Shown: positions 13,633 through 17,597 of the stretch, in pieces
How positions within the stretch are numbered: the stretch's first letter is position 1
Layout of the letters: the number at the start of each line of letters is the position of its first letter
Virus record (IMG/VR): IMGVR_UViG_3300024182_000135
Location: 1 to 37,780 of that record
Reading direction: 5' to 3' (one strand)
Source of the DNA: a virus
DNA length: 37,780 nt
Translations under genes and position numbers: made by a program
Notes under the pieces: generated by a model
Told to the model about the DNA's origin: nothing
Seen by the model: only the letters and a program-made list of their open reading frames with translations
The model's database searches: none

Positions 13633-13898
13633 TGTCCGATATCTTGCTCATAAAGAAAGAAATTATCCAAACGATGGCGACACGCGGTTGGCGTTTTGTA
13701 ACCGACCGCGCTGACGCCGTAATCAAGGACCTGACCGATAAGGCGTTAGACCAAGAGGACAAATCAAAACGCGAAGAACTGGTTACAGAAGCAAGAGCAG
13801 CAAGAAAGTTTTGGCGTGAGTTATTGCAATCGCTGGAAGCATCTAAAACAGCAGAAGCAGATACAAAAGACGACGGATGGAACGAAATATCGATGTAA
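13632..13898 (+). CDS. Hypothetical protein downstream of portal (88 aa)
   Basis: This small, charged, mostly helical protein (starting MSDILLIKKEIIQTMA) is translationally coupled to the portal by a TAATG overlap. The coupling and its place between portal and scaffold suggest a head accessory, but no family is recognised. Its 3' end is followed by the tandem GGATT-loop hairpins. Confidence 0.55.
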   Translation: MSDILLIKKEIIQTMATRGWRFVTDRADAVIKDLTDKALDQEDKSKREELVTEARAARKFWRELLQSLEASKTAEADTKDDGWNEISM

Positions 13899-13913
13899 GC
13901 AGTAAGCAGGGAA

Positions 13914-13952
13914 CCGGTCACGGATTGTGATTGGAGCGTCTCGGATTGAGAC
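13914..13952 (+). promoter_or_regulatory. Tandem GGATT-loop hairpins in the scaffold leader
   Basis: First hairpin: CCGGTCAC (13914-13921), loop GGATT, GTGATTGG (13927-13934), 8 bp with two G-U pairs. Second: GTCTC (13938-13942), loop GGATT, GAGAC (13948-13952), 5 bp. Stem sequences differ but the loop is constant. The second hairpin ends directly before CAAAGGGGAAGTAG and the ATG at 13967. The first resembles the CsrA-binding hairpin of the E. coli glgC leader as I recall it. Confidence 0.7.
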
Positions 13953-13966
13953 CAAAGGGGAAGTAG

Positions 13967-14914
13967 ATGTTAGCTCAAATTAAAAATGTGGTAGATGCAA
14001 CGGGTTCTGTAGGTGTGAATGACGAAGATTTGGAAGGATTGTCTCTCGCAGAACTACGTGCCTTAGCTGATGGTCAAGCACAACCTAAAGCTGCACCGAA
14101 GGCAGCGGAACCGAAGGTCGAAGAAGTAGAAGAAGAAATTGACGAGGATGAGGACGACGAGGAAGAAGAGGATAAATTTAAGCGTGAAATTGACCTCGGC
14201 GACGGCTCCGGCGTTCAGGTATTCAAAGCACCGACGTTAGAAAAGTTGCTTGATAAGCTGGCCGAAGCTCAGAAGAATGCGACAAAAAAGATTCGCGAGC
14301 AGGCCGCACAATTAAAGAAGTACAGCGCACAAGCCGAAGCTGAAGCCGCCGATAACGAATATGTGGTCGGTCAGGAATTGATGTCGAAACCGACCGCAGC
14401 TTTCAAGAAGCTGTTCAAAGAGACCACGGGCGTAGACATCGAATCGTTCAAGAATAGTTGGGAACGCCTGCAGGCATGGGAGCAGTCTCAAGCGGTCCAA
14501 TCTGTCGAGAATAAGAAAAATGCAGCGGCAACACAATTCCTAGCTAATCACCCAGAATTTGTAACAAATACGCAGAACGGTGCCCGACTTGAGAAAGCTA
14601 TCAATCTGTTGGTCTCTCAAGCAGAGATTAACGGAGATGAAATTGATTTTCCTAAGTTCATTGAAGAGGCATACGCGGACCTTAGTGCCAGTGGATTACT
14701 CGAACTGAAGGACGTGAAAGCTTCTGATGAAAAGAAGGAAAAAGCGGAAGAGAAGCCAGTGCAGGTCGCTGCGCATACTCGCCGTGCATCCGGTCTTTCA
14801 TCCCGTGTTCGCACAGCGACACAGCCACGAAACACCGAGCCTACTGAAGAAGATTTGTACAATATGCCGCTTGAAGAATTGAAAGAACGAGCACGCAAAT
14901 CAGCACAGAAGTAA
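13967..14914 (+). CDS. Putative scaffolding protein
   Basis: This 315-aa protein is highly charged. It has a very acidic stretch around residues 51-72, a coiled-coil region with many lysines and alanines (about 85-130), and a basic C-terminus (ARKSAQK). It lies directly upstream of the major capsid gene, the usual position of a scaffold, and the acidic-then-helical-then-basic design is typical of scaffolds that template procapsid assembly. A strong AAGGGGAAG precedes the ATG, just after the tandem GGATT-loop hairpins. There is no protease motif. The name rests on position and composition. Confidence 0.7.
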   Translation: MLAQIKNVVDATGSVGVNDEDLEGLSLAELRALADGQAQPKAAPKAAEPKVEEVEEEIDEDEDDEEEEDKFKREIDLGDGSGVQVFKAPTLEKLLDKLAEAQKNATKKIREQAAQLKKYSAQAEAEAADNEYVVGQELMSKPTAAFKKLFKETTGVDIESFKNSWERLQAWEQSQAVQSVENKKNAAATQFLANHPEFVTNTQNGARLEKAINLLVSQAEINGDEIDFPKFIEEAYADLSASGLLELKDVKASDEKKEKAEEKPVQVAAHTRRASGLSSRVRTATQPRNTEPTEEDLYNMPLEELKERARKSAQK

Positions 14915-14939
14915 CCCGAGTTTAGTAGTTAAGAATTTA

Positions 14940-14968
14940 GAACGAGTAGCTGGATTAGTTCCTCGTTC
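14940..14968 (+). promoter_or_regulatory. Long GGATT-loop hairpin in the major capsid leader
   Basis: GAACGAG (14940-14946) pairs with CTCGTTC (14962-14968). After one 1x1 mismatch the AGCT/AGTT helix leads to the same GGATT loop (14952-14956). The total is 11 pairs. A weaker partner, GCC-GGATT-GGT at 15002-15012, lies downstream in the same leader. The element is about 120 nt before the capsid ATG at 15092. Confidence 0.6.
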
Positions 14969-15066
14969 ACCGCAGCAAACACCCAACTGATTGATGAAGT
15001 AGCCGGATTGGTGAAACAGCGATTAGGTGCCGTGAACAACCTGATTGCGCAGACAGCGCACAGGTC

Positions 15067-15080
15067 TGCCCGAAAGGGCA
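15067..15080 (+). promoter_or_regulatory. GAAA-tetraloop hairpin before the capsid start
   Basis: TGCCC-GAAA-GGGCA is a perfect 5-bp hairpin with a GNRA loop, directly followed by AGAGG and the ATG at 15092. A stable small hairpin just ahead of a ribosome-binding site can raise or set expression of an abundant virion protein. Confidence 0.5.
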
Positions 15081-15091
15081 AGAGGAACAGT

Positions 15092-16075
15092 ATGACAGCA
15101 ACAGCAGCATCAGTCGTGTCTAGCGGTCTTTCCGCATACCCGACAGTTTATTACGACCGCGTAGCGCTCGACACACTACGCAGCAACCTATTTTTGTATC
15201 CGGCTTGTGAAACAAAGCAAATGCCAGACAAGAGTGGCGTTGCAATGCAAATCTTCGATTACAGCGCGTTTGGTGCTAACACCACGGCTGCAACCGAAGG
15301 TACACCCGGCAACGGACAGGCACTAACTCAGAACACCCGCACAATCAGCCTCAGCCAGTATGTTGACTATGTCAGCTTCTCGGACAAGGTTGTTATGACG
15401 GCAATCAGCGACACTGTTGCTGAAGGTGCAGCCGAGTTGGCGTTCCGTGGCGCGTTGTCAGTTGACACCGTTATTTCGACGGCAGTTGACACGGCATCGA
15501 ACGCGGATTCTGCAACGCGTATCGAAATCAACGACGGTAGCTACATGACCGCCGCGATTGCGCGTAAGGCAGCATGGCAGCTCCGTGCCAACAACATCAA
15601 GACCAAGGCAAATGGCTTGTTCTTCGGCGTTATCCCATCTTTGATGGCATACGACCTTGTGAACGATAACTCTGCCGGTGGCGCTCTTGACCTTCAGAAA
15701 TACGCTGATTCGCTTGCGTCGGACAACCCGGCATTGGTCGGAATCAAGCAGAACCGTGTGGGCAACATCGGTGGCGTTGAATGGTACGAATCAAATGCGC
15801 TTCCGACGGAAACTCACTGGCAGTCATCTGCCAACATCGGTTACCACGCGTATGTGTTCGGTTTGAATGCGTTCATCGCTTCGAGCTTGGGCAAAACGCA
15901 GCTGGGTCAGAAGAACTTTAGTGTGAAGGTGTCGAAGTTTGACCAGCCTATCGCACTAGACCCGGCTAACCAGATTGCAGCCGCTGCAGCTTACAACTTC
16001 TTCTTCGGAGTTAGCAAGCGTACCGGCAGCACCAACGGTTTTCGCCGTATTCGTGGCGAAAGCTCGATTGGATAA
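15092..16075 (+). CDS. Major capsid protein, N4-gp56 family
   Basis: This 327-aa capsid protein starts MTATAASVVSSGLSAYPT. It carries the family's landmarks in order: YPTVYYDRVALDTL near the N-terminus, a MPDKSGVAMQIFDYS beta segment, TEGTPGNGQALT, and SQYVDYVSFSDKVVMTAI followed by DTVAEGAAELAFRGAL. That pattern is what I associate with the N4-gp56 (HK97-fold) capsid family. An in-frame TTG at 15008 would add 28 residues, but the ATG at 15092 has AGAGG at proper spacing and removes a basic extension that overlaps leader hairpins, so I prefer it. Two hairpins follow the stop. Confidence 0.88.
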   Translation: MTATAASVVSSGLSAYPTVYYDRVALDTLRSNLFLYPACETKQMPDKSGVAMQIFDYSAFGANTTAATEGTPGNGQALTQNTRTISLSQYVDYVSFSDKVVMTAISDTVAEGAAELAFRGALSVDTVISTAVDTASNADSATRIEINDGSYMTAAIARKAAWQLRANNIKTKANGLFFGVIPSLMAYDLVNDNSAGGALDLQKYADSLASDNPALVGIKQNRVGNIGGVEWYESNALPTETHWQSSANIGYHAYVFGLNAFIASSLGKTQLGQKNFSVKVSKFDQPIALDPANQIAAAAAYNFFFGVSKRTGSTNGFRRIRGESSIG

Positions 16076-16081
16076 TTAATC

Positions 16082-16129
16082 GCTCTCGCAAGAGAGCACA
16101 GAGGATAGGGGATTGCTGCAGCAGTCCCT
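16082..16129 (+). terminator. Twin hairpins after the capsid gene (possible attenuator)
   Basis: GCTCTC-GCAA-GAGAGC (16082-16097) is a perfect 6-bp stem with a GNRA tetraloop. The next stem, arms 16108-16116 and 16121-16129, has 9 pairs around a TGCA loop. No T-run follows, only CTTCTCCTG. Partial termination or protection of the capsid mRNA fits better than full termination. Confidence 0.4.
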
Positions 16130-16162
16130 CTTCTCCTGTACCTGAATTAAATCAAGGAAAAT

Positions 16163-16516
16163 ATGACAGCAGCTTCGGTCGTCACCGACGACTTATCGCA
16201 GTATCCGCACGTTCCACAATGGTACAAGCTCAGCCGGAATGTAACACCAGCACAAGAACTGCTTATTCACGATGCGATTCGAATCACACCAATCTATTTC
16301 GGCATCGTCACCGATATCAATGATTTAGCGCTAGCTCATCGCTTTTCGACTGTCGTTATGCAGGTAGCAGACGATGCGGCAGCCCGAGCACTGACGCAGC
16401 AGATTTATGACACCGCTAAAGGGCATCCAAATCGCTCGGTAATTATCACAGGCGATACAGAAATATTAACGGCAGTTTATGCCGACCACGAGGCACCAAT
16501 CCATGTTGGTAGTTAA
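16163..16516 (+). CDS. Hypothetical structural-region protein (117 aa)
   Basis: The N-terminal 25 residues (MTAASVVTDDLSQYPHVPQWY) are low in charge, and the rest is a mixed alpha/beta fold. No motifs, signal peptide or membrane segment are seen. AAGGAAAAT precedes the ATG. It sits just after the capsid gene, as a decoration, head-completion or connector protein would. No family is recognised. Confidence 0.55.
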   Translation: MTAASVVTDDLSQYPHVPQWYKLSRNVTPAQELLIHDAIRITPIYFGIVTDINDLALAHRFSTVVMQVADDAAARALTQQIYDTAKGHPNRSVIITGDTEILTAVYADHEAPIHVGS

Positions 16517-17060
16517 TGACCGACGACGTTTAGGCGACCAGTTTCTCGACCCAACGGAGAATTTAGCGAAGTTAAAAGAAGGCAATGCGAAGCTGGTCGA
16601 GAAACAGAAAATTGCAGGGCAAGCCGAGTTAGAAGATTCCGAGAGAGCAGGCGGCCCCCGAATTCCGTATCAGGAACTGGTTCGTAAGATTCAAAAGTTA
16701 AATTCAAATATTAAGGTTCTAGACGGCTCACCCGGCAGCGTCGCGATTTACGTTTTAAAAACAAACAAAGAAATAGCGGAATCTGCGAACGAAGATAACG
16801 GCGACCGAACGCGCTCCGACTGGTTTAAGGCGCATAAATACGTCACCGGTTGTCCGAAAGAACCACTACCAGAATACAGCACGGTAACGGTCGATGAACG
16901 CGGAATAGCAAAGCGCGAGTTACGAGGTTGGAGGTCGATTTTGATTGCACTGATTAAAAACCGTGCAATCACGTATCGGCAAGCAGTCGAAGAGTTTGGC
17001 GACCCATTAACAGATTCGAGAAGTGGTCGCTGGTTTGAGCAGTTGCAGTCATATCGGTAG
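16503..17060 (+). CDS. Hypothetical head/connector-region protein (185 aa)
   Basis: I chose the ATG at 16503, which overlaps the previous gene by 14 nt and has GAGG nine bases upstream; an in-frame ATG at 16479 lacks one. The protein is highly charged with helical segments at the N-terminus, a mid-region VAIYVLKTNKE beta strand and an RSGRWFEQLQSYR end. No family is recognised. Between capsid and connector genes it may be a head-completion or virion-assembly protein. Confidence 0.55.
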   Translation: MLVVNDRRRLGDQFLDPTENLAKLKEGNAKLVEKQKIAGQAELEDSERAGGPRIPYQELVRKIQKLNSNIKVLDGSPGSVAIYVLKTNKEIAESANEDNGDRTRSDWFKAHKYVTGCPKEPLPEYSTVTVDERGIAKRELRGWRSILIALIKNRAITYRQAVEEFGDPLTDSRSGRWFEQLQSYR

Positions 17061-17069
17061 AAGTATCCG

Positions 17070-17109
17070 GCTTGCGGATTGCAAGCGGAAGCGGTCAGGG
17101 ATTCTGACC
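17070..17109 (+). promoter_or_regulatory. Second tandem pair of GGATT-loop hairpins
   Basis: GCTTGC-GGATT-GCAAGC (17070-17086) and GGTCAG-GGATT-CTGACC (17093-17109) are perfect 6-bp stems. As at 13914-13952, the second hairpin is followed by CAAAGGGGAAGTA and the ATG. Loop-to-loop distance is 23 nt, compared with 21 nt in the scaffold leader. Confidence 0.7.
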
Positions 17110-17123
17110 CAAAGGGGAAGTAA

Positions 17124-17597
17124 ATGAGCGAAGTAGAAAAGAAGCAAGCAACAGTAGTAGCACCAGCAGCAACATTGTCAGCAGACGAATTGAAGGCGCT
17201 TATCGAAGGCGCAGTTACAGCGGCTGTAACGGCAGCTAAAGCTCCTAATGCAATAGAGCAGGCGCAGCTGGACCGAGCACAGCAGAAAGCTGAACAGGAT
17301 AACCAGACGCGACTGGAGACGTCCGCAGAAATTAAGAAGCAAATGGAAGCCGATGCATTCCGCAAACAGACCTGTCAGCACGAAGGCGGCAAACCGAAGC
17401 ATGCTCACACAGTATTCGTGAGCGACGAACTCGGTGGTTATGTTCTATGCCAGTTTTGCAGAGCAGTTATCCGTCCGGAATCACAATTGGTTCACTTCCC
17501 GAAGGACATACAGAAAAAGCGTTCGGATATCATTTTCAACACCGCGCTGTTCAACCGAGTATTTCAGCTCACCGACGCGTCAGGAACCTTCGCCTAA
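17124..17597 (+). CDS. Hypothetical protein with a putative zinc site (157 aa)
   Basis: The N-terminal 50 residues are alanine-rich and helical, followed by a charged coil. Residues about 85-115 contain C-x-H in CQHEGG, H-x-H in KHAHTV, and a CQFC knuckle, so a metal site is likely. The gene shares its leader design with the scaffold gene: two GGATT-loop hairpins, then CAAAGGGGAAGTA and the start. That suggests it is made in step with the scaffold and belongs to virion assembly. No family is recognised. Confidence 0.6.
   Translation: MSEVEKKQATVVAPAATLSADELKALIEGAVTAAVTAAKAPNAIEQAQLDRAQQKAEQDNQTRLETSAEIKKQMEADAFRKQTCQHEGGKPKHAHTVFVSDELGGYVLCQFCRAVIRPESQLVHFPKDIQKKRSDIIFNTALFNRVFQLTDASGTFA

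What the first reader, a model, noticed from the sequence alone, without database searches (positions are those of the whole stretch)
13914..17109. Shared GGATT-loop hairpins in leaders of structural genes: a candidate translational regulon
Five well-formed hairpins (13914-13934, 13938-13952, 14940-14968, 17070-17086, 17093-17109), plus a weaker one at 15002-15012, all expose the pentaloop GGATT. Every stem is different, so the pairing was kept while the sequence changed. They lie in the leaders of the putative scaffold, the major capsid and a third assembly-region gene. CsrA/RsmA proteins bind GGA in hairpin loops, and the 13914 hairpin closely resembles the E. coli glgC site as I remember it. 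A phage using host CsrA, or its own RNA-binding protein, to set capsid and scaffold stoichiometry would be new to me.
Basis: partly seen in the sequence, partly recalled or inferred. Interest (0 to 1): 0.8.

Follow-up and report, generated by a model that had tools for sequence, protein, structure and literature searches.

The report
Phage hairpin operators controlling capsid genes

Summary
The hairpins are real, not chance, and conserved. Across about 70 related viral contigs, GGATT is by far the commonest loop of perfect pentaloop hairpins (23 against 7 for the next of 1024), almost only on the coding strand. Stems covary. Two site classes recur: leader hairpins 11-19 nt before the start codon of the scaffold gene (also g17124, and a terminase in one relative), and a pair, usually 67 nt apart, in or just after the 3' part of the scaffold gene, upstream of the capsid gene. 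In-gene hairpins number 34 against 0.23 expected from protein sequence and codon usage. Loops switch together within a phage: GGACT at both sites in one clade, AGACT at both sites and the leader in one member, GTATT at both in a distant phage. This points to one sequence-specific trans-acting factor. CsrA is unlikely: loops without GGA occur, geometry differs, no related phage record encodes it, and the one linked host genome (Acidobacteriaceae) and 57 of 60 relatives lack it. Best reading: operator hairpins for a probably phage-encoded RNA-binding protein, possibly the scaffold itself, controlling scaffold and capsid synthesis after transcription. No binding or regulation has been measured.

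The parts
13914..13934 (+). Hairpin 1 of scaffold leader, CCGGTCAC[GGATT]GTGATTGG, 8 bp
   Evidence: homologues with other stems in L001/L015, L002, L006, L019, L041
13938..13952 (+). Hairpin 2 of scaffold leader, GTCTC[GGATT]GAGAC, 5 bp; ends 14 nt before the ATG and abuts the SD AAAGGGGAAG
   Evidence: L001 has the same paired arrangement
13967..14914 (+). Putative scaffold gene (315 aa), between portal and major capsid genes
   Evidence: position; AlphaFold model largely helical; weak Foldseek matches to viral 'capsid assembly' and 'scaffolding' proteins; no Pfam or PHROG hit
14690..14700 (+). Residual in-gene site, agt[GGATT]act, 3 bp; homologous to site 1 of the in-gene pair of relatives (codons of SGLL)
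14940..14968 (+). Hairpin upstream of capsid gene, 11 of 12 positions paired, GGATT loop; 3' arm also complementary to the capsid SD
   Evidence: homologue in L001/L015 GAACCGTAGACA[GGATT]TGCCTCGGTTC; L019 has a 10-bp version
15002..15012 (+). Weak partner hairpin gcc[GGATT]ggt, 53 nt downstream of the previous loop; partner kept in L015 and L019
15081..15094 (+). Capsid SD and start (AGAGGAACAGTATG); GAGGAAC pairs with 14958-14964 in the predicted MFE
15092..16075 (+). Major capsid protein gene
   Evidence: phrog_1357, E 1.6e-19
17070..17086 (+). Hairpin 1 of g17124 leader, GCTTGC[GGATT]GCAAGC, 6 bp
   Evidence: L001 and L002 have homologues
17093..17109 (+). Hairpin 2 of g17124 leader, GGTCAG[GGATT]CTGACC, 6 bp; ends 14 nt before the ATG
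17124..17597 (+). Gene g17124 (157 aa), conserved assembly-region protein with Cys/His (zinc-like) motif, function unknown
   Evidence: alignment; AlphaFold; no PDB fold match at E<=0.001

Best explanation
These are post-transcriptional operator hairpins on the late structural mRNA. A single sequence-specific factor recognises the exposed loop (R-N-A-Y-U overall, GGAUU in this phage) on top of a short stem of free sequence, usually closed by C-G. Shown by sequence: the hairpins, their selection at RNA level, the concerted loop changes and their placement. Inferred: that the factor is a protein, that it is encoded by the phage (the scaffold protein is the favoured but unproven candidate), that in leaders it blocks 30S access to the adjacent Shine-Dalgarno, and that at the scaffold/capsid junction it changes scaffold versus capsid output, so that scaffold, capsid and g17124 synthesis are tied to the amount of free head protein.
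For: Loop enrichment 23 against next 7 of 1024 pentaloops, strand-specific. Covariation score 0.599 against 0.147 shuffled for in-gene site 2. In-gene hairpins 34 against 0.23 expected under synonymous resampling. 27 of 42 non-redundant scaffold genes have a same-loop pair, 7 more a single site. Leaders: 18 of 45 against 0 of 45 on the reverse strand and 4 of 496 control windows. Concerted switching: GGACT at both sites in L029, L003/L013, L020, L095; AGACT at both sites and the leader in L017/L012, one clade nested among GGATT phages; GTATT at both sites in L069. One relative has the hairpin against the SD of its terminase gene. 800 kb from two genomes of the probable host class show no enrichment (1 hairpin), favouring a phage factor. 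No early gene is shared by all 20 phage records compared; the scaffold is.
Against: No binding or expression data. The binder is not identified; AlphaFold and Foldseek gave no RNA-binding fold for the scaffold or g17124. The Q/E to D change in the scaffold motif SGVQVF that accompanies GGATT to GGACT is one event on one branch, so it may be coincidence. In-gene hairpins lie roughly 170-230 nt or more from the capsid start, too far for direct SD blocking. Some relatives (L070, L071) have no recognisable sites. L092 has an AGACT leader with GGATT in-gene sites, so switching is not perfect. The L069 switch is two synonymous CGG to CGT changes and could partly reflect codon drift.
Confidence: 0.6

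Rival explanations
1. Host CsrA/RsmA binds the GGA in the loops and represses scaffold and capsid translation.
For: GGA in hairpin loops, often in pairs about 20 nt apart next to SD sequences that also hold GGA, as in Csr-regulated leaders (general pattern in PMC4005645, PMC8668096).
Against: AGACT, GTATT and GCATT loops at homologous sites; full GGATT is kept, other GGANN loops are not enriched; GGA lies at the 5' side of the loop and the A of ANGGA is not conserved; CsrA absent from 23 related virus records, the linked MAG and 57 of its 60 relatives.
Confidence: 0.06
2. A different host-encoded RNA-binding protein is the factor, and phage loops follow the host's protein.
For: Loop type differs between phage lineages, which may have different hosts; the hosts are largely unknown.
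Against: No enrichment of GGATT hairpins in 800 kb of two genomes of the probable host class; sites are confined to the phage head module.
Confidence: 0.2
3. The hairpins are recognition sites of an endoribonuclease, or stabilising 5' ends, that process the polycistronic head mRNA and set scaffold and capsid levels by mRNA decay.
For: Pairs inside the scaffold ORF, far from the capsid SD, fit a processing or stability site better than direct SD blocking; a strict loop is compatible with a site-specific nuclease.
Against: Leader hairpins sit at a narrow distance (11-19 nt) from start codons next to the SD; no non-head gene, so no phage nuclease, is shared by all the phages compared.
Confidence: 0.2
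4. The hairpins are coding, terminator or DNA-level by-products (conserved SGLL and ARI codons, inverted repeats).
For: Site 1 covers conserved SGLL codons and site 2 of distant relatives covers conserved ARIEQ codons.
Against: Synonymous resampling expects 0.23 against 34 observed; leaders are non-coding; strand bias; no T-run follows them.
Confidence: 0.03

Closest known systems
CsrA/RsmA (Csr/Rsm) binding sites
   Same: Short hairpins exposing GGA in the loop, often two per leader, next to SD
   Different: Loop is GGAUU (overall RNAYU) with GGA at its 5' side; homologues without GGA; no csrA found in the phages or the linked host genome
Coat-protein operator hairpins of ssRNA phages (MS2 type; from memory)
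   Same: Phage hairpin with a fixed loop near a start codon, thought to be read by a virion protein
   Different: dsDNA tailed phage, pentaloop, no bulged A, several copies per genome, some inside coding sequence
P22 scaffolding protein (gp8) autoregulation (from memory)
   Same: Scaffold gene as target, feedback tied to capsid assembly as the proposed logic
   Different: No RNA element of this kind is known to me for P22; capsid, g17124 and terminase genes are also targets here
Lambda N / boxB antitermination hairpins (from memory)
   Same: Pentaloop hairpins read by a phage protein
   Different: Sites abut SDs and lie inside genes; loop ends in YU and is not GNRA-like; no N-like protein known here
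Rfam families
   Same: RNA structure class
   Different: No match at gathering score in the window, and none relevant at E<=10 in 13850-17200

Membership tests
CsrA/RsmA regulon | GGA in the loop of every functional site | tested here: not met
   Homologous sites with AGACT, GTATT and GCATT loops
CsrA/RsmA regulon | ANGGAX hexaloop or ARGGA pentaloop, GGA on the 3' side | tested here: not met
   Loop is GGATT; base two before GGA is T, G or A; consensus from PMC4005645
CsrA/RsmA regulon | csrA in host or phage | tested here: inconclusive
   Absent from 23 virus records and MAG G008; 3 of its 60 relatives have it; the window's own host is not established
CsrA/RsmA regulon | Binding by purified CsrA | not testable with these tools
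   needs gel shift
MS2-type coat operator | ANYA tetraloop and bulged A in the stem | tested here: not met
   Pentaloop RNAYU, mostly perfect stems
P22-type scaffold autoregulation | Free scaffold represses its own synthesis after transcription | not testable with these tools
   No expression data
Lambda boxB/N antitermination | GNRA-like purine-rich pentaloop with boxA | tested here: inconclusive
   The loop departs from the purine-rich type, ending YU; boxA was not sought
Intrinsic terminator | Stem followed by a T-run | tested here: not met
   Sequence after the leader stems is CAAAGGGGAAG or similar

The most novel reading that the evidence does not exclude
The phage scaffold protein itself, through its conserved N-terminal beta-hairpin/helix module (DGSGVQVF...AQKNATKKIRE), binds GGAUU-loop hairpins on its own and the capsid mRNA, giving a co-evolving RNA-protein code that sets scaffold to capsid stoichiometry in a dsDNA phage.
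Probability: 0.22. Interest if true: 0.88.

Novelty: new variant of a known kind. Interest (0 to 1): 0.74.

Why it matters
Tailed phages must make scaffold and capsid protein in the right ratio. P22 scaffold is known (from memory) to regulate its own synthesis, with no RNA site known to me. Here is a compact RNA code, defined by comparative genomics, attached to scaffold and capsid genes, with natural loop variants (GGAUU, GGACU, AGACU, GUAUU) that can be tested for matching specificity. If confirmed it would also give an RNA tag and binder pair usable like MS2 or PP7.

Tried and rejected
CsrA: searched in the window, related phages, MAG and relatives; rejected on loop variants and geometry as well. 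Rfam: none. GGATT hairpins in the probable host class: no enrichment. Tunturiibacter phage Tunturi_3, whose capsid protein is distantly related: no comparable system. g17124 as binder: AlphaFold/Foldseek uninformative, and it is also present in phages without leader sites. Gene presence profile for a dedicated RNA-binding gene: only head-module genes are widely shared. Convergent-residue test: I first took L095 as an independent GGACT lineage (note); trees put it in the same clade, so the scaffold Q to D change is one event and only a lead. The capsid-SD switch of 14940-14968 is predicted in the window but not in L015 or L019, so it is a lead. Literature searches for GGAUU hairpins in phages and phage CsrA capsid control found nothing relevant; the open-access library misses much older phage work. 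The spacer-like DNA search against the host class gave only short matches of no use and the G008 phage itself.
Full report
WHAT WAS CHECKED. The window is a 37,780-base virus record of a tailed phage with integrase, primase-polymerase, terminase, portal, major capsid and internal virion protein homologues. Between 13632 and 17694, GGATT hairpins with a stem of at least 5 bp number 4 against 0.021 expected by dinucleotide shuffling, and no single pentaloop reached 4 in 1000 shuffles.

RELATIVES. No close DNA relative exists in the annotated phage collection (only capsid proteins below 27% identity), but about 70 distinct IMG/VR contigs encode related portal or capsid proteins. Over these, perfect pentaloop hairpins with stem >=5 show GGATT 23 times on the coding strand and 2 on the other; the next loop of the 1024 has 7. 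With stem >=6 it is 15 against 3. Loops one letter away from GGATT are near background (0-4), so the whole loop matters, not GGA alone.

ANATOMY. There are two site classes. (a) Leader sites: one or two hairpins whose 3' base lies 11-19 nt before the start codon and which abut the SD. They occur before the scaffold gene in W, L001/L015, L002, L006, L019, L041, L017 and others (18 of 45 leaders against 0 of 45 reverse-strand windows and 4 of 496 control windows), before g17124 only in W, L001 and L002, and before the terminase gene of L038. Deep lineages L096, L097 and L039 have a hexaloop form NGGATT. (b) A pair of hairpins in the 3' part of the scaffold ORF, most often exactly 67 nt apart (range 36-85), upstream of the capsid gene. 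In the window, L015 and L019 the pair sits instead between scaffold and capsid genes, 49-53 nt apart. Of 42 non-redundant scaffold genes 27 have a same-loop pair and 7 a single site. Elsewhere in the relatives examined over most of their length, strong sites are rare.

SELECTION ACTS ON RNA. Resampling synonymous codons of each scaffold gene with its own codon usage expects 0.23 in-gene GGATT hairpins with stem >=4 in 43 records; 34 are seen. The records include a few near-copies, which inflates both numbers alike. For in-gene site 2, chosen by reading frame of GGATT and not by pairing, cells paired are 79% against 50% shuffled and 28-37% in slid registers, and covariation is 0.599 against 0.147. 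The leader set gives 1.093 against 0.185 but was chosen for pairing.

CONCERTED LOOP SWITCHING. Phages without GGATT pairs have hairpins at the same places with another loop, the same at both places. GGACT: L029 (=L004/L005), L003/L013, L020, L095. AGACT: L017/L012, at both in-gene sites 67 nt apart and in the scaffold leader. Trees put all of these in one clade whose nearest relative L032 has GGATT, so the loop changed at two sites together on one branch, and again, at two sites with a matching leader, on the L017 branch. The two in-gene sites lie in different reading frames, so the same RNA change means different codon changes. L069, far away in the tree, has GTATT at both sites while its sisters L063 and L068 have GGATT; these are synonymous changes and count as weaker evidence. 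L065 and L078 (GTATT) and L066 (GCATT) keep a hairpin at the C-terminal site (read from the sequences). Overall loop: R-N-A-Y-U. L092 is an imperfect case (AGACT leader, GGATT in-gene).

NOT CsrA. Loops without GGA, a different loop geometry from ANGGAX/ARGGA (PMC4005645), and no CsrA in the window, in 23 related virus records or in the Acidobacteriaceae MAG that carries a near-identical copy of the L092 phage. Of 60 relatives of that MAG 3 have CsrA. The host of the window itself is inferred only: integrases 48-50% identical over about 410 aa occur in genomes of that class, without comparison to other phyla. 800 kb from two genomes of the class hold one GGATT hairpin against about 2 expected, so there is no sign of a host regulon.

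MECHANISM. Shown: RNA-level selection, fixed loop on free stems, concerted loop changes, positions. Inferred: one trans-acting protein. It is likely to be phage-encoded because loop type follows phage lineage and the probable hosts show no such sites. Only head-module genes are shared by nearly all the phages compared, so scaffold, capsid or a neighbour is a natural candidate. The scaffold is favoured because it is the constant target and because its conserved module REIDLGDGSGVQVFEA...AEAQKNATKKIRE, a predicted beta-hairpin and helix, has D in place of Q/E in exactly the GGACT/AGACT clade, alongside a Q to K change in the helix that some E-bearing GGATT phages share. That is a single event and cannot carry weight alone. 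In leaders the bound protein would block the 30S subunit. At the scaffold/capsid junction the route is open: in the window the 14940 hairpin competes with pairing of its 3' arm to the capsid SD (GTTCCTC with GAGGAAC, -57.3 against -50.4 kcal/mol), which would make binding an activator of capsid translation, but L015 and L019 do not keep this arrangement.

VERDICT. A real RNA element family absent from Rfam, with a good case for a phage head-assembly regulon and a poor case for CsrA.

Noticed in passing
window:14940-14968 and 15082-15088: 3' arm of the hairpin (GTTCCTC, 14958-14964) is perfectly complementary to the capsid SD GAGGAAC: a possible on/off switch; not kept in L015 or L019.
   Followed up: partly
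L035:11753-11773, also L036, L044 and L046 capsid genes: A 6-8 bp GGATT hairpin inside the capsid gene at codons K-K-N/S-G-L-F-F in one subclade; partly forced by coding, possibly a third site.
   Followed up: no
L015, between scaffold stop (about 6183) and the capsid leader pair (about 6758): In the closest relative an extra ORF-sized insert separates scaffold from capsid gene, and the hairpin pair stays on the capsid side; its product was not searched.
   Followed up: no
window:20535-22910: 791-aa protein with a Laminin_G_3 lectin domain followed by a Hint (intein/hedgehog-type) domain near its C-terminal end.
   Followed up: no
window:1475-2332 (-): Phage-encoded protein with sigma-70 region 4.
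   Followed up: no
window:17124-17597: Conserved head-region protein with invariant C-x-H and CQ motifs, possible zinc site; no known fold match.
   Followed up: partly
L003:4840-5280: An ORF inserted upstream of g17124 in L003 looks by eye like a GIY-YIG type homing endonuclease; not searched.
   Followed up: no
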